From Fennellomyces sp. T-0311 (Eukaryota; Mucoromycota; Mucoromycetes; Mucorales; Lichtheimiaceae): 64,000 nucleotides of DNA. Position numbers and translations under genes: made by a program. Positions 3 to 64,000 of the stretch are shown piece by piece; the first letter of the stretch is position 1; every line of letters begins with the position of its first letter. Under the pieces are notes generated by a model that saw only the letters and a program-made list of their open reading frames with translations, made no database searches and was not told the DNA's origin. Where the stretch lies: assembly GCA_025266875.1 (NCBI GenBank), contig JALLLT010000052.1, positions 186,001-250,000 of the forward strand. Reading direction: 5' to 3'.

Positions 3-677
3 CCCGAACACGTTGACATTACCGAGGATGCAATGGTCCCAGAAAGACCCGAGGACATTTCGCTCCCGTCCTGGACTGGCAATAAAGGATTACATGTCCG
101 CTGGCTATTTCATACCGGAGAGGACATTTCTCTTGAATCCTTTGGAATATCTGCCGCAGATTATACCGTTTCTGGGAGTTCCATTTCGCTCACTTGCACC
201 AGTATTGCGGTTTCCGTCCAAAAGCAAAATACGTATGACCAAAGTCCGAAACGGTGGACCTGGGCCAATTGGGACATGCTGGACTGGACAATAAGTTCTT
301 CTAGCTACAACAATCTTAAATTTGTGGCTACAACAGGGAATAATGCCTATGACCGCTTTCGTATAGGGGAAAGGTACGGAATGAAAGGAACACATTTTCT
401 TCCTCTGAAAAAAGAGTCTTCTGGAACTTTGGTCAACGATCTATCGACACCGAATATTTACGGAGCCGTGATGTCACTTACAGAAGACTGTGAAGAATGT
501 ACTATACTTGTTGGTGTATGCTATGAGGACCCTTGCAACCGAAACTTCCATGTATCACCAGTTATTATGAGAAATGCGGACCACTACAAAGCCATTGGAA
601 TATGCCTATTATTCAACGTTTCCAACATATTTACCAATGTTGTAACAAAACGAAAGCAGAAATTTATCATTAAATAA
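3..677 (+). CDS. HET-like protein, C-terminal part (5' end outside window)
   Basis: The frame is open from the left edge to TAA at 675-677, giving about 224 residues, so the N-terminus lies outside the window. It aligns by eye with the C-terminal half of the broken HET-like gene at 41554-43024. Both have an LP-x-WTG motif near the start of this part, a similar region about 85 residues from the end, and a terminal KQ-x-FIIK. The HET core (fungal incompatibility/cell-death signalling domain) is not visible here; membership rests on the similarity to the other locus, which does show HET motifs. I see no stop or frameshift in the visible part. Function is inferred only from family membership. An internal ATG at 33 exists but there is no reason to start there. 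Confidence 0.6.
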   Translation, partial: PEHVDITEDAMVPERPEDISLPSWTGNKGLHVRWLFHTGEDISLESFGISAADYTVSGSSISLTCTSIAVSVQKQNTYDQSPKRWTWANWDMLDWTISSSSYNNLKFVATTGNNAYDRFRIGERYGMKGTHFLPLKKESSGTLVNDLSTPNIYGAVMSLTEDCEECTILVGVCYEDPCNRNFHVSPVIMRNADHYKAIGICLLFNVSNIFTNVVTKRKQKFIIK

Positions 678-2089: not shown

Positions 2090-3414
2090 ATGTCCGGATC
2101 TTGCGCGCGCTCTTTTGCTGCTGCTGCCATTGCCTCTGCTCTAATGCATGCCACTCACGGTTTTTCCTTCTTTTGCAATCCTCTCCCCACTGCTTCTTCC
2201 TCACCACAAGGTAAGCAAACAAAAGAGTCAATGAGAAATCAAGCAGAATCGATGAGCTGTTTCTTACGATGAAACTAGGTGTTGTATTCCGCCCAGCTTC
2301 CTTTGTTCTCGGTGGTGATTTCGGCGCTGTCGGTGACGTTAGTTTCGAAGGCGTTTTTACAGATTTCAATGTCCCGGATGTTGTGTTTGATTACGAAGGT
2401 GTGAACGAAGGCGAAGCGATGTTTGAAGAAGCTGGTGAAGATGAATCGCGTGATGATGATGAAGAGTCTGGTGACGGAGAGAAGAAGGAATACGACGATG
2501 ACGAAGAGTGGAAGGAGTGGATATACGGAGTTGATGAAGGTGTCGATGATGAAGAAGATGAAGGTGACGATGATGATGAAGGTGACGATGATGATGAAGG
2601 CGAAGAAGATGAAGAAGAAACGGACGACGACGATGAAGATGATGATAATGCCGAAGAGAAGCAAGAAGACTACGATGAAGATGACGATGAAGAGCTGATT
2701 ATCAGTTTGAGCGACGATGGTGAATTCATTGGTGCGTATGATGACAATAACGACGGAAACTGCGATGAAGACGAAGTTAAAGGCGCCGATGAACACGAAG
2801 GTGACAACGAAGGAGCGAAGAAGGTTGACCAAGTTGAAGAGGAAGAAGAACACAAAGACGACGACCAAGCGGTGGAGTCTGGTGTTGATGAAGAAGCAGA
2901 GGAGAGCCCTCAGGAGGGAGGCGATAACGTAGATGAACTGGTGGTGAACGCCCAAGACGAACTGGACAAGTACGATGACCATGCCCACGAGACAATCGAG
3001 GAAGCGGCGACAGTTGCAGAGGAGCAGGAGATCGGTGATAACTATGGCGATGACGATGTTGTTGACTATGGTGATGACGAGAATCAAGGTTGTCAAAATT
3101 CTGCTGAGAACGTTCTGGCCCTGGTGGCTGGTATTACGAACGACGAGTATGACGAGGGGGTGCTGGAGGCGGACGTGGTGATCGGAGACCCTGTTAATGA
3201 CGTACAACACGATATTCCCGAGACGCAAGTTGGTGACGAGTACGATGACCTGATGCAATACATCATTGAGCATATGGAGTCCTTGCTGTTATTGGATGAA
3301 GATATAGAGATGCCGGATGCCCCAGACGATGAAGATACGTACATGACGCGGGCTCCACCACTCGGTCCCGAACATATGGTTGTAGATCAACCCTGGCCAG
3401 TGCTCTTGCCTTGA
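2090..3414 (+). CDS. acidic putative secreted protein of an unrecognised family (stand-alone member)
   Basis: Two exons, 2090-2210 and 2279-3414, with intron 2211-2278 (GTAAGC...CTAG, phase 1), give 418 aa. The start ATG at 2090 matches that of the paralogues (MS-x-SCAR). Residues 1-25 are Cys/Arg then Ala-rich hydrophobic, compatible with a signal peptide or anchor. Residues about 80-330 are extremely Asp/Glu-rich, encoded partly by GAYGAW microsatellite-like repeats (2559-2640). The C-terminus carries the family signature: LLLDEDIEMP, a DED block, then RAPPLGPEHMVVDQ and WPV. The same signature ends the proteins at 7450-8283, 11352-12185 and 59264-60091. I do not recognise a known domain. 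Unlike the paralogues it has no tandem array after the stop and is much longer because of the acidic expansion. Confidence 0.7.
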
Positions 3415-6760: not shown

Positions 6761-7449
6761 GTTTAAGCGAAATTAAACGGCGTAACGGAATAGTGCTCCG
6801 TATGGAAACAAGGTACACTGTGCCTTACATACCTGATTCTTGCTTCAATAATCTTCGGAAACGGAGTACGCAGACAAAGCACTGATAAAAGGAAACGATG
6901 CCCTTAATGTATCAGCATGGCACAAAAGATTGCATTGTGAAACGTGCACGTCAATTCAGCTTGCCGGAACTGTGTTCCGTATTTGGCTACCGACGATCAA
7001 CCAATAGCTTCACAGTGAAAGTGTTTGTTGCAATGAGCTCATTCGCCATTGCCATTTCGAATCCCAATGAACAATGTCGCGAAGTTGTGTTTTTAAAAAC
7101 GAAATGTACTTTTCAGTTGCGCGATCGGCAACACGTTCCGGTTGTATGCTTTTAAAATGGGTTTGCTCTTGTCCTGCAATGACTTGGGTTGTCGACCGTG
7201 TGTTCAGGGTTTAAGGGGGTGGCGAAGGTCTGTGCAGGATTTATTTGTTTCTGGGACAACCGTTGCTGGTGGATACGACAACTTGTCTCAGGTCAGAGTT
7301 GCGGTTCGCGTCGCGCTTCTTTGATCTTCATATTACTGCGGCTTCCCAGCATGAGCAGAAAAGAGAAATTAAGATACCGCTAAAAATCAAAAGGGCAAAG
7401 AGGTCATTTTCTACCTTTTCCCTTTCTTTCTCTTCTTCACTCGTTGACC

Positions 7450-8283
7450 ATGTCCGATTCTTGCGCGCGCCTCGCTGCTGCTGCTGCCTTCACCATCATT
7501 GCTATTGCTACCTTCCACCGTCTTTCTGTCACCATGCCTTCTCTGCCCACCCTGCCTCCGCTGTCTTCTCTCCCGCTCCTTTCCTCTCTCCCGACCCTCT
7601 CACCAACCGGTGTTGAGGCTGTCAAGGAACTCTCCTCCTTTCTCTTCCTTTGCTTCTACTTTGTCGCCGCTTGTATGCAACCTCCCCGTTGCAGTCATCC
7701 TTCTCCGCCTCCCGCCCGTCCTTCTCCTCCTCGCACCCTTCCTTTGCCGTCTCCCGCCCGTCCTTTGCCGTCCTCAGGTAAGAGTGTCAAAAATGAAAGT
7801 GAAAACAAAACTTTCGTACTGACTTTTCCTTAAATCAAATCAGGCGATGACGAAGCTGACGATACCGCTGCTGCCTGCCTTGATGTGGCGAACGAAGAGG
7901 AAGACGAAGTTGGTGCTGTTCGTGCTCGTGTGCCGCTCTTTTCGATTACCTTCGTCGAGGAAGACTACGACGACATCGGTGATGAAGAAGTTGCTGAAGA
8001 GAACGACGGAGCTGGTAACGAAAAAGTTGGTGAAGGCGCGGTTAAACATGTTACTGACAATGACAAAGATGACGCGGTAGGTGACCTCATCAACCAATTT
8101 GCTCGGCTGAGTGTCTTTGACACGATGGACCACCTCGCCGAAAGATTCTCAATGATCCTGCTCCTTGACGAGGACATTGAGATGCCTCAAGCCAAAGCTG
8201 ACGAGGATGTCGTCATGGTGCGTGCTCCCCCGCTCGGTCCAGAGCACATGGTGGTCGATCAACGCTGGCCAGTACAGCTTTGA
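7450..8283 (+). CDS. acidic-family protein A1 (left arm of element 1)
   Basis: Two exons, 7450-7777 and 7844-8283, with a 66-nt intron (GTAAGAGTG...CAAATCAG), give 255 aa. The start is the ATG giving MSDSCAR, conserved in all copies; the in-frame TTG six bases upstream is not needed. Residues 1-25 are Ala-rich and hydrophobic. Residues about 28-110 are Pro/Ser/Leu-rich with PSLPTLPP- and SPPPARP-type repeats and one further hydrophobic block (FLFLCFYFVAACM). Exon 2 encodes an acidic domain with VEEDYDDIGDEEV and the C-terminal family signature RAPPLGPEHMVVDQ. The protein at 11352-12185 is identical. No known domain is recognised; secretion or membrane anchoring is inference. The stop is followed by 37 bp and then the tandem array. 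Confidence 0.7.
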
Positions 8284-8320
8284 GGCAACGGTGACGTCTT
8301 TGGGAGACAACCCATCAAAC

Positions 8321-8676
8321 CGCTAGGCCGCGTTAAATACCCGTTCGGATTCGTCAATGTCCCGTTCGGATTCGCTAATGCCCACATCGCTAGGCCGCGT
8401 CAAATACCCGTTCGGATTCGTCAATGTCCCGTTCGGATTCGTTAATGCCCACATCGCTAGGCCGCGTCAAGTACCCGTTCGGATTCGTCAATGTCCCGTT
8501 CGGATTCGTTAATGCCCACATCGCTAGGCCGCGTCAAGTACCCGTTCGGATTCGTCAATGTCCCGTTCGGATTCGTTAATGCCCACATCGCTAGGCCGCG
8601 TCAAATACCCGTTCGGATTCGTCAGTGCCCACATCGCTAGGCCGCGTTAAATACCCGTTCGGATCCGTTAATGTCC
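8321..8676 (+). repeat. tandem array, 67/46-bp units, in the 3'UTR of A1
   Basis: Six units begin CGCTAGGCCGCGT. A full unit is 67 bp and contains two copies of a 20-21 bp sub-repeat, CCCGTTCGGATTCGTYAATG; short units of 46 bp have one. Units start at 8321, 8388, 8455, 8522, 8589 and 8635. The array lies between the stop codon and the 3'UTR intron. Confidence 0.9.
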
Positions 8677-8865
8677 TGCCAGGTCTCTATCCTCCAATCG
8701 CTTTATATACCTGACTGTCTTTGTACCCACCCATATATATCTTTACCATCTTCGCATACTTTTCATCTGTACAAACTCTTATCATCTTGAATTCCGCATT
8801 CTACCATACTCTTATTTACTTTTGTATACCTGCCATTTTTGACAATATTTTTATTATTCTGCATG

Positions 8866-8915
8866 GTAAGCTTCTATGCAATCATGAAAATATTTGTAGC
8901 TAACTTGATTTATAG
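8866..8915 (+). other. 3'UTR intron of A1
   Basis: Donor context GCATG|GTAAGCTTCTATG, acceptor GATTTATAG. It is homologous to the introns at 3455-3506 and 62980-63033. Here the donor is 583 nt past the stop codon because the array lies in between, compared with 41 nt in the stand-alone gene. Confidence 0.55.
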
Positions 8916-10391
8916 GCTCCCCCTCAAGAAGCCAATATCGAGAAACAAGGCACGGCACAAATGAATTGGTCCGTTTCCTTTATCGTGGCAAAGTCAGCCT
9001 AGCATCCTGCTTTATCAAAGGCTATCGTTGTCATCTATATTTTATGGGAATAGCCTCCTAGGTGCCGTCATATAAATATCACGGGTTACATCAAGGAAAA
9101 AGCAGCCGCAAGTCATCATCATCTATCAAGGTCAAGCACTGAAACCCACACATCTACGGGAATAGCAAGGTTCCGATCCGGAGCAATGAAACACTGTCAT
9201 CATTATCACAATCTCTAAGCTTATATGGTACATTTGCTTGGAGATACTGCCAGATATTTGTCGTCGCCAAACAGCGGAAGCAATCAACGCAGCATATACA
9301 GCCAAAGTTATCCTCATTGTCACCTTTACAAGAATTGTCACTGCTTTGGTACTTTTTATCGAATCGTTGGTCGGGCACATAGCGGCATATGTCATCAGGT
9401 ATATACTTTTATTGCCAATCAACAGAGATCAATATGACTCAATTGTTTATTCACATAGTTAACGGCCACGGCAGAGAAAGAGTAATTATTACAAACGAAA
9501 GGTCGTTGTCAAAAACCACTGGAGCGGAACTTTTCTACACAAGGCTAGAACGGATAAGATCAACCAACAATCTTACTTCCAAACCACTATTATCGGGAAG
9601 CACCATCATCGAACTCAACTACAAGATGGGGAGCAATGCAACATCACCGTTCATCAAGTCATTATCAAGCACAGTACACAAAGTGGAACGCACAGTAATA
9701 TAACTAATTGCATTCAAACTTTACCGTGCACTGATACACTGATCAATAGTAACCGGTACAGCTCCAACGCAAATTGCGATAGCCGTCTTGCGTAACGCAT
9801 AACATTATCGGTAAGCTGGGTAAAGTTCCGCCAGCAGGGAGTTTATATGGTATAATTTCAGTGCTCACAATGATAGATATAGGTTATTATTGCTTCAGCT
9901 TTCAAAAGAGAACACAAGCACCACACACGAATACAGTACAAGAACATTCCGGTGTAATTGTCGCATCTTCGATATACCATTATCCATGGTTACATACCTT
10001 CCCTGGATCATCGACTATATTCACTGTTATTACGAAGTCAACAACCGTACAGTTATCGATTGCGCTATATGCTTTATGTGCAACCTTGATTCGGTTTTAC
10101 CGATCAAGTAAGGCAACTCCGTTAACTTGGTCTCTGATCTTCAATCTCTTCGACAATATGGCAACATGATGTTTACTTTGGTTTCAAGAGATTCGAACAA
10201 GCATATCCGAATTTGGGGAAAAAGCAAGAATTCAAAGTTAAATAATAAAAAAGAAAAACTCGTTTTATTAATATTTGATACCGTATCTTTGCATTTGAAT
10301 GATACCGACATTAGCAGTGGCAAAATCTGGCTGTGCTGAAAAATAGATTGGAACTACTGCATAGTCGACTTTGACATGCAAGGTATTTATA

Positions 10392-10581
10392 CAGTCGAAC
10401 CCCGGTTTCTGCAGCTCCCGTTTCGTGCAAAACCTCATTATATGCATCAAAATATTTGGAATTCTCAAAGCGGTACAAAGCAGGTATGACTGTATCGACG
10501 GCCTCCCAGTTAGTGCACGACCTCACTGTATGCAATAAAATGTTTGGATTTCCCTGTTCTGCACAAAGAGGGGTTCGACTG
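10392..10581. mobile_element. pogo/Tc1-type MITE, 190 bp
   Basis: The ends are CAGTCGAACCCC-GG-TTTCTGCAG and, inverted, CAGTCGAACCCC-TC-TTTGTGCAG, about 23-bp terminal inverted repeats. A TA dinucleotide flanks both sides (10390-10391, 10582-10583), the target duplication expected of Tc1/mariner/pogo elements. It has no coding capacity. The same insertion, also 190 bp, is present at 61068-61257, so it predates divergence of the two large elements. Confidence 0.7.
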
Positions 10582-10955
10582 TATTTTATAATATTTTCAG
10601 TCACTGCTTTTATCGCCTATAGGTATGTTTTCAACGCCCTTTGGGTCGTGCATTCATGTCGAGCGCATTTGATTTTCATTGTGATATAATAAATGTCATT
10701 TTCACAAGACTATATCTGCAATCGATAGAACAAGAGCCAACCCTGATAACAAATTACAATAATTATATCACGATCATAAGGGGGATATAGCACGCATACA
10801 CATGGCTAAAAAAGGGATGCAAACGAAATAATATACGTATGTAATGTGAGTATATACAAGGCGTTTATATATTTCAGCTATATAGCCATAGTTTAAATAG
10901 AGGGCTTTCAGAGTTGCACAGTACTCCATCCATTCAGCTTTCCTTGCAGCAATGA

Positions 10956-11314
10956 GAACGGGTATTTAACGCCGCCTAGCGATGTGGACATTAACGAATC
11001 CGAACGGGACATTGACGAATCCGAACGGGTATTTGACGCGGCCTAGCGATGTGGGCATTAACGAATCCGAACGGGACATTGACGAATCCGAACGGGTACT
11101 TGACGCGGCCTAGCGATGTGGGCATTAACGAATCCGAACGGGACATTGACGAATCCGAACGGGTACTTGACGCGGCCTAGCGATGTGGGCATTAACGAAT
11201 CCGAACGGGACATTGACGAATCCGAACGGGTATTTGACGCGGCCTCGATGTGGGCATTAGCGAATCCGAACGGGACATTGACGAATCCGAACGGGTATTT
11301 AACGCGGCCTAGCG
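10956..11314 (-). repeat. tandem array, 67/46-bp units, downstream of A2
   Basis: Inverted counterpart of 8321-8676, with the same CCGTTCGGATTCG sub-repeat. It differs by a CTA deletion near 11243-11248 and by having an extra 21-bp sub-repeat at the inner end, so the arrays are the first place where the arms diverge. The inner junction (GAGAACGGGTATTTAACG) matches the left inner junction of element 2. Confidence 0.88.
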
Positions 11315-11351
11315 GTTTGATGGGTTGTCTCCCAAAGACGTCACCGTTGCC

Positions 11352-12185
11352 TCAAAGCTGTACTGGCCAGCGTTGATCGACCACCATGTGCTCTGGACCG
11401 AGCGGGGGAGCACGCACCATGACGACATCCTCGTCAGCTTTGGCTTGAGGCATCTCAATGTCCTCGTCAAGGAGCAGGATCATTGAGAATCTTTCGGCGA
11501 GGTGGTCCATCGTGTCAAAGACACTCAGCCGAGCAAATTGGTTGATGAGGTCACCTACCGCGTCATCTTTGTCATTGTCAGTAACATGTTTAACCGCGCC
11601 TTCACCAACTTTTTCGTTACCAGCTCCGTCGTTCTCTTCAGCAACTTCTTCATCACCGATGTCGTCGTAGTCTTCCTCGACGAAGGTAATCGAAAAGAGC
11701 GGCACACGAGCACGAACAGCACCAACTTCGTCTTCCTCTTCGTTCGCCACATCAAGGCAGGCAGCAGCGGTATCGTCAGCTTCGTCATCGCCTGATTTGA
11801 TTTAAGGAAAAGTCAGTACGAAAGTTTTGTTTTCACTTTCATTTTTGACACTCTTACCTGAGGACGGCAAAGGACGGGCGGGAGACGGCAAAGGAAGGGT
11901 GCGAGGAGGAGAAGGACGGGCGGGAGGCGGAGAAGGATGACTGCAACGGGGAGGTTGCATACAAGCGGCGACAAAGTAGAAGCAAAGGAAGAGAAAGGAG
12001 GAGAGTTCCTTGACAGCCTCAACACCGGTTGGTGAGAGGGTCGGGAGAGAGGAAAGGAGCGGGAGAGAAGACAGCGGAGGCAGGGTGGGCAGAGAAGGCA
12101 TGGTGACAGAAAGACGGTGGAAGGTAGCAATAGCAATGATGGTGAAGGCAGCAGCAGCAGCGAGGCGCGCGCAAGAATCGGACAT
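11352..12185 (-). CDS. acidic-family protein A2 (right arm of element 1)
   Basis: Exons 11858-12185 and 11352-11791 on the minus strand, with a 66-nt intron, encode 255 aa identical to A1. Domain layout is the same: N-terminal hydrophobic Ala-rich segment, Pro/Ser/Leu-rich region, acidic exon-2 domain and the RAPPLGPEHMVVDQ signature. Its 3' side differs from A1: after the array it runs into the other end of the spacer, which has no counterpart to the family's 3'UTR intron nearby. Transcripts of A1 and A2 would therefore encode the same protein with different 3'UTRs. Confidence 0.7.
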
Positions 12186-12714
12186 GGTCAACGAGTGAAG
12201 AAGAGAAAGAAAGGGAAAAGGTAGAAAATGACCTCTTTGCCCTTTTGATTTTTAGCGGTATCTTAATTTCTCTTTTCTGCTCATGCTGGGAAGCCGCAGT
12301 AATATGAAGATCAAAGAAGCGCGACGCGAACCGCAACTCTGACCTGAGACAAGTTGTCGTATCCACCAGCAACGGTTGTCCCAGAAACAAATAAATCCTG
12401 CACAGACCTTCGCCACCCCCTTAAACCCTGAACACACGGTCGACAACCCAAGTCATTGCAGGACAAGAGCAAACCCATTTTAAAAGCATACAACCGGAAC
12501 GTGTTGCCGATCGCGCAACTGAAAAGTACATTTCGTTTTTAAAAACACAACTTCGCGACATTGTTCATTGGGATTCGAAATGGCAATGGCGAATGAGCTC
12601 ATTGCAACAAACACTTTCACTGTGAAGCTATTGGTTGATCGTCGGTAGCCAAATACGGAACACAGTTCCGGCAAGCTGAATTGACGTGCACGTTTCACAA
12701 TGCAATCTTTTGTG

Positions 12715-14155
12715 TCGTGGTTCATCAATGAGATTACCCTTTTGCTTTGGCAGTTCTTTGACAAAACCCTTTCCTATACGACCACTGAATGAAAGAATCA
12801 TAAAAGCAAGACACATAAGATGTGTATTACGGATGCATCCATAGCTACAATCAAATACAAAGCTACTCAACTTCGTTTCATTGATAATATTTGGATTGAT
12901 GGAAACTAGTAAAGACCAAAACAAAGCCGGTTCCGGAAAGCGCCGTTCTACTTACGATATTCGTAAAGAAAAATCACATAGTTTACAGTGTTTGTTTACC
13001 CATCATCAACCCTACCAAATCATCAGCACACAGCACAATAGGGAAAAAACACATACTCTAAAGCTGTAATCAAATATCAAATATAAAATATGCTTTACTG
13101 TGATGAGTATCACTACTCATATATCAAACAAAAGGGTAGTAATACATGAAGACAACACAATCGAATCATGGAAAGCTAGATCGCACGGTTTGAATGCATG
13201 ATATGGTATAAAGCTGACTTCGCGGTAAACCTTAAATTCTGTATCAGCAAAAGTTTCAAAAGCAGGAAATACCAGCAGGGAAAACCGCCACCATTCCACG
13301 GAAGCTCGACAAGCATGCCAAGATAGTAGAGTTGCCGGCCATTGCATAGTTCCATCAGCAGCTTCTTTCATACCATATTGAATTGTCGTCATCGATATGG
13401 GTCGTAGTTCCATAAAACAGCAGTCTATATATCCTTAAAGTAAGGAAATCGATCTGTGCATATAGACATCAAATGAAGTACTTTTTTTTTTTGCAAACCT
13501 GGAAGTCTTTGAGATAATAATTCTTCTCCGGTATGGACCATCCGGTATCCGTATGAAACGAACCTTTTTCACATCGCCAAATATATTGAGTTCATTTTAA
13601 AGTATTCAATTGGGTAATAAAGAGCGTTTGACGGCACTCACCTGTATATAAATGGAGTGATCGGCAAGCATTTCGGATGCAAACCGCCGTAACCACTCGA
13701 GGTAATGCTGGACGCACGTGTCATTCCTCACGTGATGCAAAACCCTTCACAACTCGTTTCATACAGTTATGCAGTTATACGCTCATACAGATGTTCGACA
13801 AGTTCCTGTAGCTAGCGTATACTTTTTTCATTGTGTTTCCACGGGTCGGCGATCAGCATCCTTCTGCCAGTCATATTTTTAAAGAAGGCAGAACCCTTCA
13901 TGACCCGGTCTATACAGCCATAAACTAACACAGATATTCAACAGGTTGCTTACTCTAGGCAGCCGTAAGCAATTCAGTCCATAAAATCATCTATCTATAT
14001 TATAATAGCGACATCCAAAAATTATTAAGAAAACCTCCTTCCTTTTTTGGAATCACTCTGTCCCTCACTTTATAGGAAATATTTTTTTTGTATCTTTAAA
14101 CTATATATTAAGTACGTCGCTAAGCTCTTTTTGTCGTTAATATATACGTAGAGTT
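12715..14155. other. intergenic, nothing recognised
   Basis: AT-rich sequence directly outside the truncated right arm. Open frames such as 13117-13413 (minus) have no recognisable motif. An oligo-A/T run lies near 13483-13492. Confidence 0.45.
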
Positions 14156-17116: not shown

Positions 17117-20100
17117 ATGGAGCAAATTGTTAACAAAAGATATAATAATCGTGAGGAAATTCTCAATGATCTCAAGAAGTTGGCCAACAAGAAGTTCGAA
17201 GTGAAAATTGGGAAGAGCTGCTTGAGTTCTAAGAGCGAGAAGGCAACCATTTTTACGAACTTCATTTGCGGTCACGGTGGTGACTATCGCGAACACCGCA
17301 GTAAGAAGGCATCAATCGCGGTTGATAAGGAAACAAAAGGTATTGCTTATCTGAATAATAGAATTACATAGAATGAACGCTTTATTAATCTACATGCTGA
17401 TGTTGGAATAAAGATGAAATGAACGTGGCCGATGACAATAATAATGCTGTTGATGACTTGCCTTCAGTGGATGATACAGTTAATATATACTATGAAATGA
17501 GATAAATAGGGTATTGATGTGTATGTCATCAGGATGTGAAGCGCGGCTATCATAAATGTAGTAACGGCGTCGTGAAAAAGAACCCTACGCGCACCTCAAA
17601 GAAGCTCGGTTGTCCTTGGCTCATATATGCTTCTCTAAGCAAGAAAACTGGATTATGGACAGCACAGATCAAGAGCTCGGAGCATTCGCATCCACTGTCA
17701 TCTACCAACCTTTTGTATCACAAACACCGTAACGATGATTTGGAAAGACGGGCAAATGTTATTGAAATGTCACAAAATATGTTGACACCAGCACAAATTT
17801 TGCTCCAAACGGCAGACTTAGATGGGAAGCAATCCATGATTTCTAAGGACATCTATAAAATCAGAGAGGAAATGGCGAAAATGGAGAAGTCTTCTTCTGA
17901 CGCACTTGCACTGCACAACTTCCTCAAAAGCCATGGCTATACAATACGATTCAACCACGTGGATAACACCATTGACAAGCTTTTTGCAACACATAAGACA
18001 AGCATTCAGCGCGCAAGAAAATTTCCCCATGTTGTAATCATCGACGCGACATATAAAACGACAACGAGCAAGATGCCTTTAGTCAACATTGTCGGTATCG
18101 ACAACATCGCATCAAACCATTCGAACAATTCGCTCCGGTCGTTTTATATTGGATCAGCCCTAATTGCCAACGAAAAAGAAACGGCGTACCGATGGATGCT
18201 TGATCAGCTAAGGTCCGTTGTTTTTGATAATGACATGGTTAAGCCAGGCATCTTCGTCACCGATGATGACAAAGCGCTTGGTGCAGCTCTACGAGCTGTA
18301 TATCCAGATGTTCCTCATACTTTGTGTGCATGGCATATAGCCAAAAACTTTGACGCGCACACCTCTCGATGTTTTGTAAGCGGCTCTGATGACGATACTG
18401 AATTGTCAAGGGTCATTAAAGTTATGCTATGGAGCCGCACCATTAAGGAATTTAATGAAGCGGTCGCCGATTACCGGACGCTGGTTGGCAAAACAAAAAA
18501 GTCGCAAAAGCTAAATAGCTACATGGATAGGTAAGTGCACATCTCATATCTCTATAAATTACTTAACATTGACCACAAAAGCTTGGAAGAATATAAAGAA
18601 CGCTGGGCTGGAGCTTGGGTTGAAAAGTATGCCCATCTTGGCGCGCGCACCACTCAACGTATTGAAGGTGCACATTGGAGTATCAAGCAGATTCTAAGCA
18701 CACCTGGAAGTCTGAAGAAACTTTTCAACGCAATTCATATATATCTGCTGAAAAATGTATAGTACAAAATGGTACATCGGGATATTGGTTACTAATGACC
18801 TTATTCAAATTTTTCAAGGACTTTTCTGTGGAGTATGGTAATAACAAGGAGCAACTTAGTTTTTTGCCGTTCAAAGACGAAGATAACTACATTGACAAGG
18901 AGATGCGAGCCGCACTACGTCCACTGCAAGGTACTATATGCCATTTTGCAATCCGTCGCATCAGAGACGAGCTGTACAAAAGTTGGTCCCTTGATCAAAA
19001 TGAACGACAAAATGTGCTAGAGGAAGGTTGCGATTGCGTAGCTCGTATAAATTATCTACTACCATGTCAACACGAACTTCATGCCGATAAAAGCGAACAG
19101 GTTCTACCAGTGAATATTAATGATAGATGGCGGCTTGAGTTTGCGGCAGGTATAGAACATGTCTATTATTCTTTTTCTGCACCAAATGTACACCCTCTCA
19201 CTCTTTTCCCTAGTTAATGTTGACAGCCTACCAATCTCTAACCCAGACGAAGTGAGCCTAGGCACTGAATTCTCTGAGGTCATGAGTTCGGTTGCGAGCC
19301 TCTATCAAGAGCTTAGTAATAGCCAACAACAAGCCGACCTTATTGCATCACTCCGAGGTCTGATAGAAAGGTTCAAGCCGGTTAATATAGAAGACCTATC
19401 CTTTCCGAAGCATATCACCACAAAGGGCAGACCGAAAGGTATCAAAGGCACAAGGTTACCATCGGCGTTCGAGAATGCGGAGCACGAAGAGAAGCAGAAG
19501 GAGAAGGCTCGCAAAGAAGCAGCGAAAAATGATGAGGATCAACAAGGGGATAATACCCTCAAGTTCTCAAAAAAGAGAAAAGTGCCCACTGAGGATGACC
19601 ATGATGATCTCTGGCCTCAAAAGAAAAGCTACAGGAAAAAGGCACTGACATCCGTACCAAGGTAGGCAAGGAACAAATGAAGTTAGAAATTTCGCCAATA
19701 TCGGGTTTCTTTAGTTGGGTTCATGAGCAAGTACCGCGGCACGCGATATGCGCTGTAATTACCGTTCGTAGCGATGGGTGGTGTGGATGGAGAGCACTTG
19801 CTGCTCAATACGAGAAGTGCAAATTCGACGAGAACCGCTTCATTGAGGTGAAGGAGAGGATGCTCTCCACTGCCAGAGCTAATGCAGCAATTTATCTCAA
19901 ATATGTCTGTATGGCTTCGGAAAGAGAGTATCAATATCTTCTTGAAACCCTTGAGTATGGTGTCGCTCTGAAGACAGCCCATCTGCGTACGAAGTCTTGT
20001 CCTCTCAAATACTGGTTTGATGCCAATACGATGGCCCAGATTGCAGCAGATGCACTGGAAACACCTATAGCTGTATTCATTACCGGGACTGCGTCCGAGC

Positions 20101-20360
20101 ATACACCCACACTCTACTTGCCATTATCACCACCACCATCTGGTGCGAAGCCACAACCATTTGTTTTGCACTTAGTCGGTAACCATTACTTCGGGCTTGA
20201 GATGCTTTCAACTATTAAAGTTGAGTGGCCCATGGTTGCACGCTTTCACCAAGATGCATGGAATGAACTTCAACTGGGAGGGCACTATAAGTCTGCATGG
20301 CGCCATGTTCATAGGGCTAAGACTGTGATTAACCAGTCCTTTTACACACTTGACGAATAA
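17117..20360 (+). CDS. MULE transposase fused to an OTU-type cysteine protease domain
   Basis: Exons: first exon from 17117 (end unresolved, about 17300 or 17339), then 17533-18530, 18582-18756, 18819-19149, 19214-19661 and 19715-20360. The last five join in frame for 866 codons. Order of domains: FAR1-type DNA-binding region (CGHGGDYREHR; then SKKLGCPW), MULE transposase core with IDATYK, TDDDKAL and RIEGAH as the DDE residues and CAWHIAKN in between, a SWIM finger (CDC ... CQHEL), a basic linker, then an OTU domain with DGWCGWRA (catalytic Cys) and GNHYFGLE (catalytic His). Joining the first exon to the second in frame runs into TGA at 17515-17517 with either donor, so this copy may be disabled by one nonsense change or spliced differently. 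Confidence 0.8.
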
Positions 20361-54891: not shown

Positions 54892-57800
54892 TAAGTTCTT
54901 TTTTTTTGGAAAAAGAGTGTCGTTTAGTGCCAGCAAGAAATTTTGCTGTCCCTTTATGCAGTCTGGGTATGGGTCAACTAGTGCGAAAAAAAGTAGAATC
55001 GGTTGCTTGATTATGGAGCGATCTACTTTCTGGATTGTAGCGCCAAATGAATAATTCGCCCAAGTTATCAGTTTCGTCCACTCGTCAGGCGAACCTGGCC
55101 GAGAGAAAGCGGTGCTCATTCTGCTCGTTGCTACAACTTTACCGCAGACGTAAGACATTTGCAAGCATCCTCGTTGTGCACGTTGGCCTATCGTTTTCTG
55201 TGTCCCTGCCAACAATTCTGTGCAGCCAACACTTGTTCTCCCTTCTGATTCAACTTTGCATATGGACTTGTCTGATTCGGCGTGCTTTTAATATATTTTC
55301 CAACGGTTGTCTCGCTGGCGATACAGCGATCATTGTTACCTATGGCGTTCGGATCGCCATTTACTTTTCTGTGAGTCCTTTTCTGGAAAACTACCACTTG
55401 ACGCTTAAAAAATGATCCTAATCAAGAGTGTATCATAGAAACTCACAGTCACCGCACTATTTGGTTCCTACGTTACTTATGTAGCGACTATATCTCGCAA
55501 CCAGCTTGTTCACGATGCAGCGCTATTACTCCAAAGTAATGCCATCTCAAAGAAAGCTTCATCGCTTACACAACAGAGAAACTTCACTTGCCAGTTTTGG
55601 TTGTTTAGATAATGCTTTCGCACTAAGACAAATCAATGTTGCTCGATGCTACGCATCAGGAGTGTACCAAAGAACAATTCATCTGCCCTCTCCTCTCTGT
55701 CCCACGTTAACCCATATGCAAATGTATATTTCTACATTATCTCCATTGCAGCCACATCCCAGCCTGTTCAAGAACAGCTGCGCGTACGTGTCGATGCAAC
55801 GTAAGCTTGATAGTAGCAATGTCAAATCTCAAACAACGACTAATTGGACGTCCACCAAACAAAAAGCTTGTCGTTGATTGGGTTCGATTTCACTATCATA
55901 ATCGATAACAACGTTTTCATTGGTATGTGTACCGTTTGGTTCTCAGAGCTATCAACACGGATCCAAAGTTTGGCCTGGGCACTCGAGTTGTGCACATGAC
56001 GCATCGAAAATGGGATCAGTAGATGACTCTTTTATCATGTCACCAAGGTCTCGATTCTTGATCGCTTCGACAGTCCTGATTCGGTTGCCCGCGTTTACTA
56101 GAGCAAAAACCATATTTTTCGACAAGTATACTACTCTACCTGTTTTTACGGTGTCTACCAGTTCATTAGGAACCAGCATATCCCAGTCATCGCTTCCTAG
56201 CCGTCCTCGCAAGCGTGGACAACAATGTCAAAGGCACTAGTTTGTTCACAAGCTAAATTACCCTTTGCGAGGACCTTTTCTCGAGTTGTGCTCATGGAAG
56301 AATGGCTTGCAAAAGCATTCTTGTTTTTTTCTTTATGCGCGATGAACCAATTTTTTCATATTATGATCTTCAGTCGACATAGCTACAGCTCTTGGTATCC
56401 CTGCTGACATAGTACTTGGTATGGCTTTTTCTTTTGTTGGAACCTGGATAGCTTTTGGTAAGCCCATCCTGCTCAACTTTGTTGTGCGTTTGACGCGCCG
56501 CACTACTGATTCTGACGGTTGCTCCACTTGTTCTGTTGTTGAAAGGCCCTTCATTTCTCGGTACCATAACTGGATCGCGCTCTACACATAGTATACATGG
56601 GTTATTGGTTAATGCTACCCATCTCAATGTGCTTTATTGATTACTATTGTCTTTGTTTTTCGTCACTATACAAAAAAAAGAACAAAATAAATTCCAAACT
56701 ATCTGTAAATATAATTGCCTTTGTTGTATCCACAACTTAATCACGGCTCATGCACCACTTACCCTTGTTTGCTTATTGACAACAGGTTACTTTAATTTTC
56801 CAATCTACAGCCACATCCCTGTTCCTGACATGGGCTCCTTATAATAACCTTACGTATCTCAGTGAAGCCCACATAACCCTAGTTAGCGCAGCGGTTCATA
56901 TGTCTTTCAACCATGACAATGATGCAACCCCTCAAGAATAAGCTTTTATTATTTAAAGTGATGATTCAGCATAAAGGTCTGGAAAAAAAGACGCTGCCAA
57001 TTTTTCAGCGTTCAAACCATTTCCCCATTATATCTCTTTTTTGACCAATGAAATCTGTCTTCTGCGCTTAATAAAATTTGTTCCTGCGATGTAGACGCGT
57101 ACTTTTGCTTAAACATATATCCCGCTGAAGAGGAATGGAAGCCTCCTACACGCAATGGCGCTGCAATATCGACAAACGAATCTTGTATGGCAATGAACAT
57201 AATTTATTTTCTCCAGAAACATAAAAAGGTCCTGAAACAAGCTACCGGTCACACCCTCCGTGGACGTGTATCCAAGGTCAATGGCATTGGAAACAGCACG
57301 GCACTGAAGGTGTTAGTTATGTACAAAGTCAATGAAAACCCATCGGCCATTAAAGACCGAAACTCCAGCTCGAATCTGGTTACGTTGCTAATGTGCACGA
57401 AACCGTCGTAGAAAAAGCAAATTCTGCAATAGATTGACTTTTGAGCCTACCTTAGTCTAGTTATACAAGAAGCACAGTCCTTGGGGTGGGCCCCAGACTT
57501 TTGGAAACCATCTGCATCAAATGGGTCTCTATTATGGTGTAGCCATAAGGCTAAACGCACTTCATAACGCACTGAGTATTGTCAAATATCGTCACCAATA
57601 TGTTACAGTGTGACTCTGTAATCTTACTAATGGTAAGAGAAATTACTACCCCAAGTTTTCAAAAGCTTTTTTTAACGATCGTACTGCCATATTGGCCATA
57701 CTAACCGTCTGATCTGACTTCCGCATTGTGGATTTACGATTGAAAAAGGAAGAAGGCATCAGTTGGTGATTTTTGGTGGATTCCTCATATATTGTCAAGA

Positions 57801-58572
57801 CAACCGCCTCTGTGCTAAGACCCGTTAAGGATAGAAATGATATTATTATTTGGCCAGTAGCAGATAGAGCACGCCATTCGAACCAGCCAAAGCGTGGAAG
57901 GCCCTTTCAAGATGCAGAAGAGTTGAAATTCCTACTGAAACGTGTCAGAAAAGCTGGAATTACACCAGATCTGTATGACTACTATGGCAATTTCACTGTA
58001 GATCTCTTTGAAGCAATTTTTAAGGATCTTTGCAAGCGTTTGGGTGACAAATACCCCAATGGATTGAAAAGTTTTCGGGTTCAGTGAAAGAGCAAGTTCG
58101 CGACAAAGGTCCTGACGACGAAGATACTGCATTGCAGCTGCGAAACACTTTATTAGAGCTTTTTTTCTGCGACTGAAAAGTCGAGTCTGGTTCTTATGTG
58201 CAGGGAATCAGTTTAAACAGACCGTAGCTACGAAGAACTGCAAGAGAAAGGCTTTAATGTTGGCGTCGATCTGTGTAAGGTTGACTTCAAATCCTGAAAA
58301 ACCTACTCTACTTTTTTCGATGACATACCATTTTCCCTTCTATAGTAGCTACCACTAAAAACAAATGAGCACGTAGTCCATTAAAGTGAATCTTTAGAAA
58401 AGATATAGGAGTGTATTCTAGTTTTTGAACTGCAGCACGCGGATGCTTAGTACATGAGACATTGGGATTTGAAAAAAAGTGATTGCATCTCCTTTATCCA
58501 GATCTCTGCTTGTTATCTGATACATTATAAGGCTAAAATGTGTTGATTACTGTCTAAGCTGAATCTTTATTT
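54892..58572. other. gene-poor interval
   Basis: The first ~200 bp is the LEO1 5' region. Beyond it I see only fragments: frames at 55506-55877 (plus), 55952-56212 (minus), 57187-57411 (plus) and 57773-58087 (plus; contains RGRPFQDAEELKFLLKRVRK but lacks an ATG). None is recognised; they may be decayed transposon or gene pieces. Confidence 0.35.
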
Positions 58573-59263
58573 GTTTAAGCGAAATTAAACGGCGTAACGG
58601 AATAGTGCTCCGTATGGAAACGAGGTACACTGTGCCTTACATACCTGATTGTTGCTTCAATAATCTTCGGAAACGGAGTACGCAGACAAAGCATTGCTAA
58701 ACGGAAACGATACCCTCAATGTATAAACATGGTGCAAAAGATCGCCTGTTGTGAAACGTGCACGTCAATTCAGCTTGCCGGAACTGTGTTCCGTATTTGG
58801 CTACCGACGATCAACCAATAGCTTCACAGTGGAAGCGCTTCCGTAATGAGCTCATTCGCCATTGACATTTCGAATCCCAATGCACAATATCGCCAATTTG
58901 CATTTTTAAAAACGAAATGTACTTTTCAGTTGCGCGATCGGCAACACGTTCCGGTTGTATGTTTTTTAAAATGGGTTTGCTCTTGTCATGCAATGACTCG
59001 GGCTGCCGACCGTGTGTTCAGGGTTTAAGGGGTTAGCGAAGGTCTGTGCAGGATTTATTTGTTTCTAAGACAACCGTTGCTGGTGGATACGACAACTTGT
59101 CTCAGATCAGAGTTGCGGTTCGCGTCGCGCTTCTTTGATCTTCATATTACTGCGGCTTCCCAGCATGAGCAGAAAAGAGAAATTAAGATACCGCTAAAAA
59201 TCAAAAGGGCAAAGAGGTCATTTTCTACCTTTTCCCTTTCTTTCTCTTCTTCACTCGTTGACC

Positions 59264-60091
59264 ATGTCCGATTCTTGCGCGCGCCTCGCTGCTGCTGCTG
59301 CCTACACTGTTATTGCTATTGCTCCTATCCACCGTGTCTCTGTCACCATGCCTTCTCTGCCCACCCTGCCTCCGCTGTCTTCTCTCCCGCTCTTTTCCTC
59401 TCTCCCGACCCTCTCACCAACCGGTGTTGAGGCTGTCAAGGAACTCCTCTCGTTTTTCTTCCTTTCCTTCTACTTTGTCGCCGTTTGCATGCAACCTCCC
59501 CGCTGCAACCATCCTTCTCCGCCTCCCACCAGTCCCTCTCCTCCTCCCACCGGTCATTTGCCCTCTCCCGCCAGTCCCTTGCCGTCTCCAGGTAAGAGTG
59601 TCAAAAATGAAAGTGAAAACAAAACTTTTGTACTGACTTTTTCCCCAATCAAATCAGGTGATGACGATGATGCCGCTGTTGTCTGCCTGGATGCAGCGAG
59701 CAAAGAGGAAGAAGAAGTTGGTGCTGTTCGTGTGCGTGTGCCATTGTTCTCGATTGCCTTCGTCGAGGAAGACTACGACGACATCGGTGATGAAGAAGTT
59801 GCGGAAGAGTACGACGAAACTGGTAACGAAAAAGTTGGTGAAGGCGCGGTTAAACATGTTACTGACAATGACAAAGATGACGCGGTAGGTGACCTCATCA
59901 CCCAATTTGCTCGGCTGAGTGTCTTTGACACTATGGACCACCTTGCCGAGCGATTCTCGATGATCCTGCTCCTTGATGAGGACATCGAGATGCCGCAGGC
60001 CAAAGCTGACGAGGACATCGTCATGGTGCGTGCTCCCCCGCTCGGTCCAGAGCATATGGTGGTCGACCAACGCTGGCCTGTAGTGCTTTGA
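59264..60091 (+). CDS. acidic-family protein B1 (left arm of element 2)
   Basis: Exons 59264-59591 and 59658-60091 with a 66-nt intron give 253 aa. Same layout as A1: Ala-rich hydrophobic start (MSDSCAR), Pro/Ser/Leu-rich region, FFLSFYFVAVCM block, acidic exon-2 domain with VEEDYDDIGDEEV and C-terminal RAPPLGPEHMVVDQ. The intron length is a multiple of three and here has no stop in frame (A1's intron has TAA), so retaining it would give a 275-aa protein with a 22-residue insertion. No known domain; substitutions against A1 cluster in the Pro-rich region while the C-terminal signature is kept. Confidence 0.68.
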   Translation: MSDSCARLAAAAAYTVIAIAPIHRVSVTMPSLPTLPPLSSLPLFSSLPTLSPTGVEAVKELLSFFFLSFYFVAVCMQPPRCNHPSPPPTSPSPPPTGHLPSPASPLPSPGKSVKNESENKTFVLTFSPIKSGDDDDAAVVCLDAASKEEEEVGAVRVRVPLFSIAFVEEDYDDIGDEEVAEEYDETGNEKVGEGAVKHVTDNDKDDAVGDLITQFARLSVFDTMDHLAERFSMILLLDEDIEMPQAKADEDIVMVRAPPLGPEHMVVDQRWPVVL

Positions 60092-60128
60092 GGCAACGGC
60101 GACTTCTTTGGGAGACAACCCACCAAAC

Positions 60129-60694
60129 CGCTAGGCCGCGTCAAGTACCCGTTCGGATTCGTCAATGCCCACATCGCTAGGCCGCGTCAAATACCCGTTC
60201 GGATTCGTTAATGCCCATATCGCTAGGTCGCGTCAAATACCCGTTCGGATTCGTCAATGTCCCGTTCGGATTCGTTAATGCCCATATCGCTAGGCCGCGT
60301 CAAATACCCGTTCGGATTCGTCAATGTCCCGTTCGGATTCGTTAATGCCCATATCGCTAGGCCGCGTCAAATACCCGTTCGGATTCGTCAATGTCCCGTT
60401 CGGATTCGTTAATGTCCACATCGCTAGGCCGCGTCAAATACCCGTTCGGATTCGTTAATGCCCATATCGCTAGGCCGCGTCAAATACCCGTTCGGATTCG
60501 TCAATGTCCCGTTCGGATTCGTTAATGCCCATATCGCTAGGCCGCGTCAAATACCCGTTCGGATTCGTCAATGTCCCGTTCGGATTCGTTAATGCCCACA
60601 TCGCTAGGCCGCGTCAAATACCCGTTCGGATTCGTCAATGTCCCGTTCGGATTCGTTAATGTCCACATCGCTAGGCCGCGTCAAGTACCCGTTC
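60129..60694 (+). repeat. tandem array, 67/46-bp units, downstream of B1
   Basis: About nine to ten units starting CGCTAGG(C/T)CGCGTCAA with the CCGTTCGGATTCG sub-repeat, longer than the arrays of element 1. The inner junction (CCCGTTCTCATTGCTGC) matches the A2 side of element 1. Confidence 0.9.
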
Positions 60695-61067
60695 TCATTG
60701 CTGCAAGGAAAGCTGAATGGATAGAGTACTGTACAACTCTGAAAGCCCTCTATTTAAAATATGGCTATATAGCTGAAATATATAAACGCCTTGTATATAC
60801 TCACATTACATACGTATATTATTTCGTTTGCATCCCTTTTTAGCCATGTGTATGCGTGCTATATCCGCCTTATGATCTTGATATAATTATTGTGATTTGT
60901 TATCAGGGTTGGCTCTTGTTCTATCGATTGCAGATACAGCCTTGTGAAAATAACATTTATTATACTACAATGAAAATCAAATGCGCTCGACATGAATACA
61001 CGACCCAAAGGGCGTTGAAAGCATACCTATAGGCGATAAAAGCAGTGACTGAAAATATTATAAAATA

Positions 61068-61257
61068 CAGTCGAACCCCTCTTTGTGCAGAACAGGGAAA
61101 TCCAAACATTTTGTTGCATACAGTGAGGTCGTGCACTAACTGGGAGGCCGTCGATACAGTCATACCTGATTTGTACCGCTTTGAGAATTCCAAATATTTT
61201 GATGCATATAGTGAGGTTTTGCACGAAACGGGAGCTGCACAAACCGGGGTTCGACTG
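61068..61257. mobile_element. pogo/Tc1-type MITE, second copy
   Basis: 190 bp with CAGTCGAACCCC-type ends, the same insertion as 10392-10581 in the opposite window orientation, as expected from the inverted spacer. Confidence 0.68.
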
Positions 61258-62979
61258 TCTAAATACCTTGCATGTCAAAGTCGATTATGCAGTAGTTCCA
61301 ATCTATTTTTCAGCACAGTCAGATTCTACCACTGCTAATGTTGGTATCATTCAAATGCAAAGATGCGGTATCAAATACTATAAAACGAGAGTTTCTTTTT
61401 TATTATTTAATTTTGAATTCTTGCTTCTTCTCCAAATTCGGATATGCTTGTTCGAATTTCTTGAAGCCAAAGTAGACATCATCTTGCCATATTGTCGAAG
61501 AGATCGAAAATCAGAGACCACGTTAACGGGGTTGCCTTACTTGATCGGTAAATCCGGATCAGGGTTGCACATAAGAGCAAATAACGCAATCGATAACTGT
61601 ACGGTTGTTGATGTCGTAATAACAGTGGATATAATCGATGATCCAGGGAAGGTATGTAACCATGGATGGTGGTATGCCGAAGATGCGACAATTACAAGCG
61701 AGTTGTCCTTGTATTGTATTCGTGTGTGGTGCTTGTGTGCTCTTTTGGAAGTTGAAGCTATAATAATCTATGTATAGCATTGTGAGTACTGAAACTATAC
61801 CATAAATTTCTCCGTTATCGGAACCCTACCCAGCTTACCAATCATGTTATACGTCACAGAAGGCGGCTATCTCAATATGCCTTGGAGATGTACCGGTTAC
61901 TATTGATCAGTGTATCAGTGTGCTGTAGAGTTCGACCGCAATTAGTCATGTTACCTTGATTTATACTTGTGTACGGTGTTTGATAATAACTTGATGACGA
62001 TGACATTGTATTGCTTCCCATAGTTTGTTCATGGTTCTCAACTCCCGAATAAGTTTGGATGACCGGTGCTTTGGTATTGCAAATAACGACAATGGTTTGA
62101 AGTTGTGTTCCTACACCTTAATTCACCCATTGGCGGTGTAGTGGTGGTATCTGTTGGTGTAATGACGGCGGTTCTTGATAATTGTATCGACCATTGAGGT
62201 TGTTGAATGATGTGTTCCCCAAATTTTGGCAATTACGTAGGTGGTTTCGACGACGAGGCGTCTTGACAATCGTTGACTTGGAGGTAAGCTTGGTTGTGAA
62301 GATGTGCGAAGTGCACCTTCGGTTGCTGGTTGACCGTATCCGCTCTAGCCTTGTGTAGAAAGCTCCGCTACAATGGTTTTTGACGACGATCTTTCGTTCA
62401 TAATAATTGCTCTTTCTCTGCCGTGATTCGTAGACTATGTGAATAAGCAATTGAGTCATGCTAATCTCTGTTGATTGGCAAAAAAGTATATACTTGACGA
62501 CACATGCCGCTGCGCGCCCGACCGACGATTCGATAAAAAGTACCAAAGCAGTGACAATTCTTTAAGATGACGCTGAGGATATGCTGGTTGTATCTGCTGC
62601 TTTGATCGTTTCTGCTGTTTGACGATGACATTTGTTTGGCAGTACCTCCAAGCAGATACCATATAAGCTTAGGGATGATGATAACGATGACAGTGCTTTA
62701 TGGCTCCGGTTTGGAAGCTTTGGCTTTTCCCTGGATCATGTGGTTTGATGCTTGCTATTCCGGTAGACGCGTGGATTTTAGTGTTTGACCTTGATTGATA
62801 ATGATATTTATATATGACGACCCCGAGGAGGTTGTTTCCATAACATATAGATGATAACGATGGCCTTTGATGTTGCGGGATGATAGGCTGTCTAACTTCC
62901 GCCTTCGTCGTGATAAAGAAAGCAGATCACTCATTTGTACCGTGCGTTGTTTCTCAATATTTGCTTCTTGATGAGGAGC

Positions 62980-63033
62980 CTATAAATCAAGTTAGCTACG
63001 AATATTTGTATAAATAACTGTATATAAGCTTAC
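62980..63033 (-). other. 3'UTR intron for the predicted right-arm gene of element 2
   Basis: On the minus strand: CTGTATG|GTAAGCTTATATAC ... TTGATTTATAG|GCTCC, homologous to 8866-8915. It would serve the inverted gene lying beyond the right edge. Confidence 0.5.
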
Positions 63034-63258
63034 CATACAGAAATAATAAATATATTCTCAAAGATGGTGGGTATACAAAAGCAAATACGTGTATGATACA
63101 GTGCGGAATGCAAACCGATGCAATTTTGTACAGATGAGGGGTATCCATAAATGAAAGCAGTATATACAGATGGAAAATATACGACGATGATAAAGATATA
63201 CATGGATGGGTGCACAGGCAGTCAGATATATAACGCAGTTGAAGGATAGAGGTTTGGC

Positions 63259-64000
63259 AGGACATTGACGGATCCGAACGGGTATTTAACGTGACCTAGC
63301 GATATGGACATTAACGAATCCGAACGGGTACTTGACGCGGCCTAGCGATGTGGGCATTAACGAATCCGAACGGGTATTTGACGCGGCCTAGCGATATGGG
63401 CATTAACGAATCCGAACGGGACATTGACGAATCCGAACGGGACATTGACGCGGCCTAGCGATGTGGACATTAACGAATCCGAACGGGACATTGACGAATC
63501 CGAACGGGTATTTGACGCGGCCTAGCGATATGGACATTAACGAATCCGAACGGGTACTTGACGCGGCCTAGCGATGTGGGCATTAACGAATCCGAACGGG
63601 TATTTGACGCGGCCTAGCGATATGGGCATTAACGAATCCGAACGGGACATTGACGAATCCGAACGGGACATTGACGCGGCCTAGCGATGTGGACATTAAC
63701 GAATCCGAACGGGACATTGACGAATCCGAACGGGTATTTGACGCGGCCTAGCGATGTGGACATTAACGAATCCGAACGGGACATTGACGAATCCGAACGG
63801 GTACTTGACGCGGCCTAGCGATATGGACATTAACGAATCCGAACGGGACATTGACGAATCCGAACGGGTACTTGACGCGGCCTAGCGATATGGACATTAA
63901 CGAATCCGAACGGGACATTGACGAATCCGAACGGGTACTTGACGCGGCCTAGCGATATGGACATTAACGAATCCGAACGGGACATTGACGAATCCGAACG
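63259..64000 (-). repeat. tandem array, 67/46-bp units, right arm of element 2
   Basis: More than ten inverted units of the same family, running off the window. It shows higher-order structure: a block of about 310 bp near 63300-63610 (including two GGGACATTGACG variants) appears repeated once. Confidence 0.88.

What the first reader, a model, noticed from the sequence alone, without database searches (positions are those of the whole stretch)
6761..12714. Large palindrome carrying two identical inverted copies of an unknown gene
The arms 6921-8676 and 10956-12714 mirror each other; feature coordinates pair to the constant sum 19,635 over the gene regions, and multiple overlapping frames translate identically, so the DNA is identical over at least 1.1 kb. 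Element 2 has the same design but a visibly different arm sequence. Identity within an element with divergence between elements points to arm-to-arm gene conversion or recent arm duplication. I know of no described fungal element with this layout.
Basis: partly seen in the sequence, partly recalled or inferred. Interest (0 to 1): 0.85.

Follow-up and report, generated by a model that had tools for sequence, protein, structure and literature searches.

The report
Self-homogenising palindrome of orphan fungal genes
In a mould related to Lichtheimia, two copies of a gene known only from this genome face each other in a mirror-image stretch of DNA, and one copy appears to have overwritten the other recently, which is a known kind of process seen here in a new gene family.

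Summary
The palindrome is real. Its arms match base for base over 1,469 bp (6921-8389 against 12714-11246) and, after one 2-bp gap, over 233 more. The genome is Fennellomyces sp. T-0311 (Mucorales), judged from protein names and contig lengths.

GTTTAAGCGAAATTAAAC is not a transposon end: in the second palindrome homology runs 1.6 kb beyond it on both sides. The arms carry a two-exon orphan gene under purifying selection, returned only from this genome in three protein searches. Three palindromes share one layout: gene, 3' minisatellite, middle, minisatellite, gene.

Best reading: arm-to-arm gene conversion. Other pairs among eight homologous arms are 91.5-97.2% identical; the element 1 pair is 100%. 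The left arm switches from its own flank type to the right arm's type between 6920 and 6921, so the right arm was probably the donor. Flanks are swapped relative to the middle in a third palindrome, suggesting a past crossover.

Gene-bearing palindromes kept alike by conversion are known, also in a fungus (Cryptococcus pheromone genes). The gene's function is unknown.

The parts
6761..6920 (+). A-type flank of the left arm; 94-96% identical to the A flanks of 5 other arms (one of them over 145 of 160 bp); homology to other A arms stops at 6761
6921..8624 (+). converted stretch of the left arm: no substitution against the right arm, one 2-bp gap after 8389
7450..7777 (+). exon 1 of the left gene (MSDS start, two hydrophobic stretches, proline-rich end)
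   Evidence: the public model BJV82DRAFT_583289 starts 28 codons later
7778..7843 (+). 66-nt intron, GTAAGAGT...ATCAG
7844..8283 (+). exon 2 of the left gene: acidic tail and family C-terminal motif, TGA stop at 8281-8283
8321..8676 (+). left minisatellite array (67-nt unit = 21 + 46), 37 nt after the stop codon
8677..10955 (.). middle (spacer) m1-m2-m3-repeat-m4, shared in whole or part with the other palindromes; contains dispersed repeats
10956..11314 (-). right minisatellite array
11013..12714 (-). converted stretch of the right arm (probable donor)
11352..11791 (-). exon 2 of the right gene
11792..11857 (-). intron of the right gene
11858..12185 (-). exon 1 of the right gene
12715..13142 (-). 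B-type flank of the right arm; relatives at C135:231649-232082 (93%) and C98:190036-190949 (82%)
56972..58572 (.). element 2: outer A flank, mirrored at C131:251648-253242 outside the window (86%)
58573..60694 (+). element 2 left arm: A flank, gene, array
60695..63259 (-). element 2 middle, in the opposite orientation to that of element 1
63260..64000 (-). element 2 right array; its arm continues beyond the window to C131:253242
2090..3414 (+). distant paralogue with the family C-terminal motif; upstream and start region 1592-2128 is 68% identical to the arms; exon 1 and intron read by eye

Best explanation
Element 1 is a convergent pair of paralogous orphan genes in inverted repeat, whose arms recombine with each other. 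SHOWN by sequence: the two arms have different outer flanks (A and B), each with relatives elsewhere, and different inner array ends, yet they are identical in between; the left arm changes from A-type to B-type between 6920 and 6921. INFERRED: a recent non-reciprocal copy of about 1.7 kb from the right arm onto the left arm, by ectopic gene conversion within a chromosome or between sister chromatids; exchange of shorter patches among the other arms; and an older crossover between inverted arms that turned the middle relative to the flanks in one of two related palindromes. The gene encodes a protein with two N-terminal hydrophobic stretches, a proline-rich stretch, a probably disordered acidic tail and a near-invariant C-terminal motif, and is under purifying selection. 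Its cellular role is not known; a membrane-anchored protein is my guess.
For: Element 1 arms 1400/1400 identical in the gene region against 91.5-92.8% to the other six arms. Of 29 diagnostic columns in 6861-7000, the 23 up to 6920 are A-type and the 6 from 6921 on are B-type in the left arm. The B flank has its own relatives on C135 and C98. dS is 0 within element 1, 0.056 within element 2 and 0.13-0.27 for the remaining pairs; dN/dS is 0.27-0.51 in every pair that differs (6 of 8 arms used: one is frameshifted, one, though intact, was missed by the script's intron pattern). In 12 of 21 arm pairs the longest run of shared polymorphic sites had a shuffle p below 0.005 (e1R dropped because it equals e1L, 2,000 shuffles, uncorrected). 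Element 1 reads A-m1...m4-B, element 3 reads B-m1...m4-A.
Against: No reads were available, so consensus polishing that made the arms alike cannot be excluded. The B-type diagnostic states rest on two sequences, one of them the right arm itself. Variation of rate among sites can lengthen shared runs in the shuffle test, and 9 of the 21 pairs did not reach p 0.005. Converted arms are not GC-richer than the others (0.504 against 0.499-0.507). The arms of elements 2 and 3 are not homogenised to identity. The flank swap could also come from separate duplications, and only a 155-bp piece of m4 is left in element 3.
Confidence: 0.8

Rival explanations
1. Recent inverted duplication: one arm was newly copied in inverted orientation, so the arms are identical because they are young, with no conversion.
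For: Perfect identity over 1.4 kb is what a fresh copy would show.
Against: Both arms carry their own flanks with homologues elsewhere, the inner array ends are of two types that recur in other palindromes, and the same gene-middle-gene layout exists in two diverged palindromes.
Confidence: 0.08
2. Assembly or polishing artefact: a hairpin, or consensus correction that made two diverged arms identical.
For: No reads were available; near-identical arms about 2.4 kb apart are hard for short-read polishing.
Against: The arms have different flanks, different array ends and a private 2-bp gap. Arms at 97.2% and 92.4% in the same genome were not made alike, and an inverted pair on C128 keeps 1.7% divergence.
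Confidence: 0.08
3. A mobile element (foldback or terminal-inverted-repeat transposon) bounded by GTTTAAGCGAAATTAAAC that carries a captured gene.
For: The 18-mer is present at five places, and the outermost A flank has dispersed relatives on other contigs.
Against: At four of five places the homology continues past the 18-mer. Outer boundaries differ among copies. Element 1 has unlike ends, A and B. No Pfam domain in the two open frames of the middle that were scanned. Long matches to the arm (over 800 bp at 72% or more) lie on C131, C135 and once on C98 only.
Confidence: 0.04

Closest known systems
Cryptococcus MF pheromone gene repeats at MAT (PMC526376, passages seen; PMC12510652, passages seen)
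   Same: Short gene-bearing repeats, usually in inverted orientation, in a fungus, thought to be kept alike by intra-allelic gene conversion.
   Different: Those are pheromone genes at the mating-type locus. Here the gene is an orphan with a 3' minisatellite. None of 24 HMG-box matches in the genome lies on the four contigs that hold the 17 strong family members, so linkage to a sex locus is not indicated.
Mammalian X and Y chromosome palindromes (PMC8981503, abstract and outline seen; Rozen et al. 2003 seen only in reference lists)
   Same: Inverted arms with genes, arm identity above that of other copies, arm-to-arm gene conversion.
   Different: Arms here are under 4 kb, only one of three palindromes is homogenised to identity, and no GC gain was seen.
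[quoted passage not shown]
   Same: Fast-changing multicopy family with repeats and non-allelic gene conversion.
   Different: No sequence relation was returned, there is no evidence of drive or of two transcripts, and dN/dS is well below 1.

Membership tests
Gene-bearing palindrome with arm-to-arm gene conversion | Inverted arms more alike than other copies of the same sequence | tested here: met
   Element 1 arms 100%, others 91.5-92.8% to them. Element 2 arms 97.2%, more than to any other arm; element 3 arms only 92.4%, less than to some others
Gene-bearing palindrome with arm-to-arm gene conversion | Conversion tract edge between unlike flanks | tested here: met
   Switch at 6920|6921 in element 1; not examined for the other palindromes
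Gene-bearing palindrome with arm-to-arm gene conversion | Raised GC from biased conversion (not a necessary feature) | tested here: not met
   0.504 against 0.499-0.507 in the other arms
Gene-bearing palindrome with arm-to-arm gene conversion | Support from single long reads | not testable with these tools
   No reads held
Terminal-inverted-repeat or foldback transposon | Constant termini | tested here: not met
   Homology continues past the 18-mer at 4 of 5 places; boundaries vary
Terminal-inverted-repeat or foldback transposon | Target-site duplication | tested here: inconclusive
   Outer flanks of element 2 printed: no obvious duplication by eye; no empty site available
Terminal-inverted-repeat or foldback transposon | Own transposase | tested here: not met
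   No Pfam family at E<=0.1 in the arm gene or in the open frames 9783-10166 and 61127-61774 of the two middles; shorter frames were not scanned, and non-autonomous elements would also fail
wtf-like meiotic driver | Sequence homology to wtf | tested here: not met
   Protein searches returned only this genome; no direct comparison with a wtf protein was made
wtf-like meiotic driver | Poison and antidote from two transcripts; transmission bias | not testable with these tools
   No transcripts or crosses
Sex-locus palindrome | Linkage to the HMG-box sex locus | tested here: not met
   0 of 24 HMG_box matches on C131, C135, C128 or C98; contigs are fragments, so distant linkage is not excluded. 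That the Mucorales sex locus is an HMG gene is recalled

The most novel reading that the evidence does not exclude
The family is a selfish or recognition gene system peculiar to this lineage, in which convergent inverted pairs with a 3' minisatellite act as a device for concerted evolution: breaks in the array start conversion, which keeps a pair matched while pairs at different loci drift apart, as would suit a poison-antidote or allorecognition specificity.
Probability: 0.06. Interest if true: 0.8.

Novelty: new member of a known kind. Interest (0 to 1): 0.42.

Why it matters
Gene-bearing palindromes that keep themselves alike are best known from sex chromosomes and from a fungal mating-type locus. 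Here several palindromes of one layout lie in one genome, one freshly homogenised and others diverged, in an early-diverging fungus and with no sign of sex-locus linkage. That makes tract length, direction and the link to inversions measurable. The orphan family itself, with a variable middle and a near-invariant C-terminal peptide, is a clear target for functional work.

Tried and rejected
Transposon reading: rejected because the supposed terminus is internal to longer homology in the other copies.

Positive selection on the gene: the coding region varies more than most of the A flank (6761-6880), but dN/dS is 0.27-0.51, so it was rejected for the gene as a whole; single sites were not tested.

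Function by family or fold: no Pfam family for the arm gene or the distant paralogue, no PDB sequence match at E<=1, and an AlphaFold2 model of the C98 relative P0009 (five relatives aligned) with mean pLDDT 55.5 and pTM 0.23, whose main features are N-terminal helices at 4-28 and 50-69 and shorter ones later. No fold search was run on so weak a model.

Telomere proximity: no exact TTAGGG x3 in the assembly, so no conclusion.

Second haplotype: (10 kb query) did not list its own place, so it was discarded. One search (1.1 kb of a PUF gene) found only itself, which argues against an allelic copy of that stretch.

HET genes near the arms: median distance to the nearest HET match 14.4 kb against 25.4 kb under circular shifts, p = 0.11, on the four contigs that hold the family; not significant.

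Literature: ten searches. Searches returned nothing. In the lists shown by the others (only the top 8-15 of up to 463 papers) I saw no title on this gene family or on palindromes in Mucorales; no search used the gene's locus names. Only openly licensed PMC papers are held, so this is weak evidence of absence.
Full report
WHAT IS THERE. Around window 6761-13142 two copies of a gene face each other tail to tail. From 6921 inwards the left arm equals the reverse complement of the right arm from 12714 for 1,469 bases, to 8389. The right arm then lacks 2 bases, and 233 further bases are identical, to 8624. Over the full aligned stretch, arrays included, identity is 98.5%.

WHERE IT LIES. The window is C131:186001-250000 of a 45.6 Mb, 182-contig genome. 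The arm gene and its relatives are annotated as hypothetical proteins of Fennellomyces sp. T-0311, on contigs whose lengths match C131, C135, C98 and C128.

THE GENE. Two exons, 328 nt and 440 nt, around a 66-nt intron, give 255 residues. The public model P0001 starts 28 residues later. Seven of eight arm copies have an open frame to the family C-terminus; the C135 195-197 kb copy is frameshifted, and the C135 232 kb copy is open but shorter, 244 residues (gap seen). Among six copies dN/dS is 0.27-0.51 wherever there are differences (the frameshifted copy and the 232 kb copy, which the script's intron pattern missed, were left out). No Pfam family or PDB match was found. Hydropathy shows hydrophobic stretches near the N-terminus, between residues 4 and about 76, and the model of a relative has two helices there, at low confidence.

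THE FAMILY. A near-invariant C-terminal motif, around RAPPLGPEHMVVDQxWPVxL, recurs at 22 places at E<=10, of which 17 have E below 1e-8: 7 on C131, 4 on C135, 4 on C128 and 2 on C98. Three protein searches returned only this genome: 7 of 4,547, 7 of 7,997 and 3 of 7,990 candidates, the last two capped to the candidates sharing most words. Since the search needs shared 5-residue words, distant relatives could be missed. Of the 17, eight lie in tight inverted pairs: elements 1, 2 and 3, and a C128 pair with arms of at least 6.8 kb at 98.3% and about 14.5 kb between them. Four more are in looser inverted arrangement (C135 196 kb and 225 kb; C128 1079 kb and 1308 kb). The remaining five are not known to be paired.

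THE LAYOUT. Mapping landmarks of element 1 gives element 1: A, gene, m1-m2-m3-repeat-m4, gene, B. Element 2 (C131:242972-253242), read in reverse, is: A, gene, m1...m4, gene, A. Element 3 (C135:231468-240412) is: B, gene, m1, m2, a 155-bp piece of m4, gene, A. The arrays start 37 nt after the stop codon and are made of 21-nt and 46-nt units; array matches were found at 18 places, all within 9 arm loci on C131 and C135. The inner array ends are of two kinds, one joined to m1 and one to m4, and each recurs in other palindromes.

WHY CONVERSION. First, identity: 1400 of 1400 in the gene region of element 1, while all other pairs of the eight arms lie between 91.5% and 97.2%. Second, the edge: in 6861-7000 there are 29 columns where five A arms agree, two B arms agree and the two types differ. 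The left arm is A-type at the 23 columns up to 6920 and B-type at the 6 columns from 6921 to 6934. Just outside the edge the two arms match at 29 of 60 ungapped positions. Third, each outer flank has relatives: the B flank on C135 (93%) and C98 (82%), the A flank on five other arms. A fresh duplication would not easily give this. The direction, right to left, follows if the A-type junction was ancestral on the left arm; that is an inference. Fourth, patchy sharing among the arms: 12 of 21 pairs had a shuffle p below 0.005, the other nine did not (uncorrected, e1R left out because it equals e1L).

INVERSION. Because element 1 has A next to m1 and element 3 has B next to m1, the middle and the flanks have changed partners. 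A crossover between inverted arms does that. Independent duplications could also do so, and I hold this step at about 0.6. The opposite orientation of element 2's middle is not itself evidence, since both its flanks are of type A.

RESULTS AGAINST. Element 2 and element 3 arms are not homogenised to identity (97.2%, 92.4%), and the element 3 arms are each closer to some other arm than to each other. There is no GC gain in the converted arms. No reads were available. The first haplotype check did not find its own place and was replaced by a smaller one.

WHAT IT IS LIKE. Fraser and colleagues describe Cryptococcus MF genes in about 500-bp repeats, usually in inverted orientation, likely maintained by intra-allelic conversion, and compare them with Y palindromes (PMC526376, passages); a 2025 study suggests the same as unconfirmed (PMC12510652, passages). 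Mammalian sex-chromosome palindromes keep arms over 99% alike (PMC8981503, abstract). The present case works like these. It differs in carrying an orphan gene with a 3' minisatellite and in showing no HMG-box match on its contigs (0 of 24). I file it as a new member of a known kind.

Noticed in passing
C131:185226 into window 3-677; window 41554-43025 (-); genome-wide: HET (heterokaryon incompatibility, PF06985) genes: 145 matches over the cut-off in this Mucorales genome, some with stops. A group with 52 HET-domain members is reported in Lichtheimia corymbifera and called absent from the other zygomycete genomes then sequenced (PMC4133162, passages). One copy lies in the window and the likely C-terminal part of another at its left edge.
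   Followed up: partly
17518-20360 (+): MULE-type transposase (PF10551, E 1.4e-23 in 17518-18531) followed by further open frames without a confident domain.
   Followed up: no
56721-56973, 10376-10583 and 9958-10170: Dispersed repeats of about 200-250 bp, present on many contigs.
   Followed up: no
56972-58572: Outer A flank of element 2 has 72-79% relatives on C106, C113, C101, C79 and beside the paralogue at C131:160 kb; possibly an old transposon.
   Followed up: no
6761 and C135:225587: Two A arms lose homology to the others within about 15 bp of the same point, at the 18-mer GTTTAAGCGAAATTAAAC, with unrelated sequence outside. Unexplained.
   Followed up: partly
7301-7480 and mirror: Upstream and start region of the arm gene is nearly invariant among the arms (57-60 identical of 58-60 per window) and recognisable in distant paralogues at 66-73%: probably a conserved promoter.
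   Followed up: no
P0003, P0005, P0006: Public models of sister copies run past the usual stop; by eye P0003 and P0005 continue into array sequence and P0006 into the middle, unlike P0001, P0002 and P0004. Annotation of the 3' end is inconsistent.
   Followed up: no
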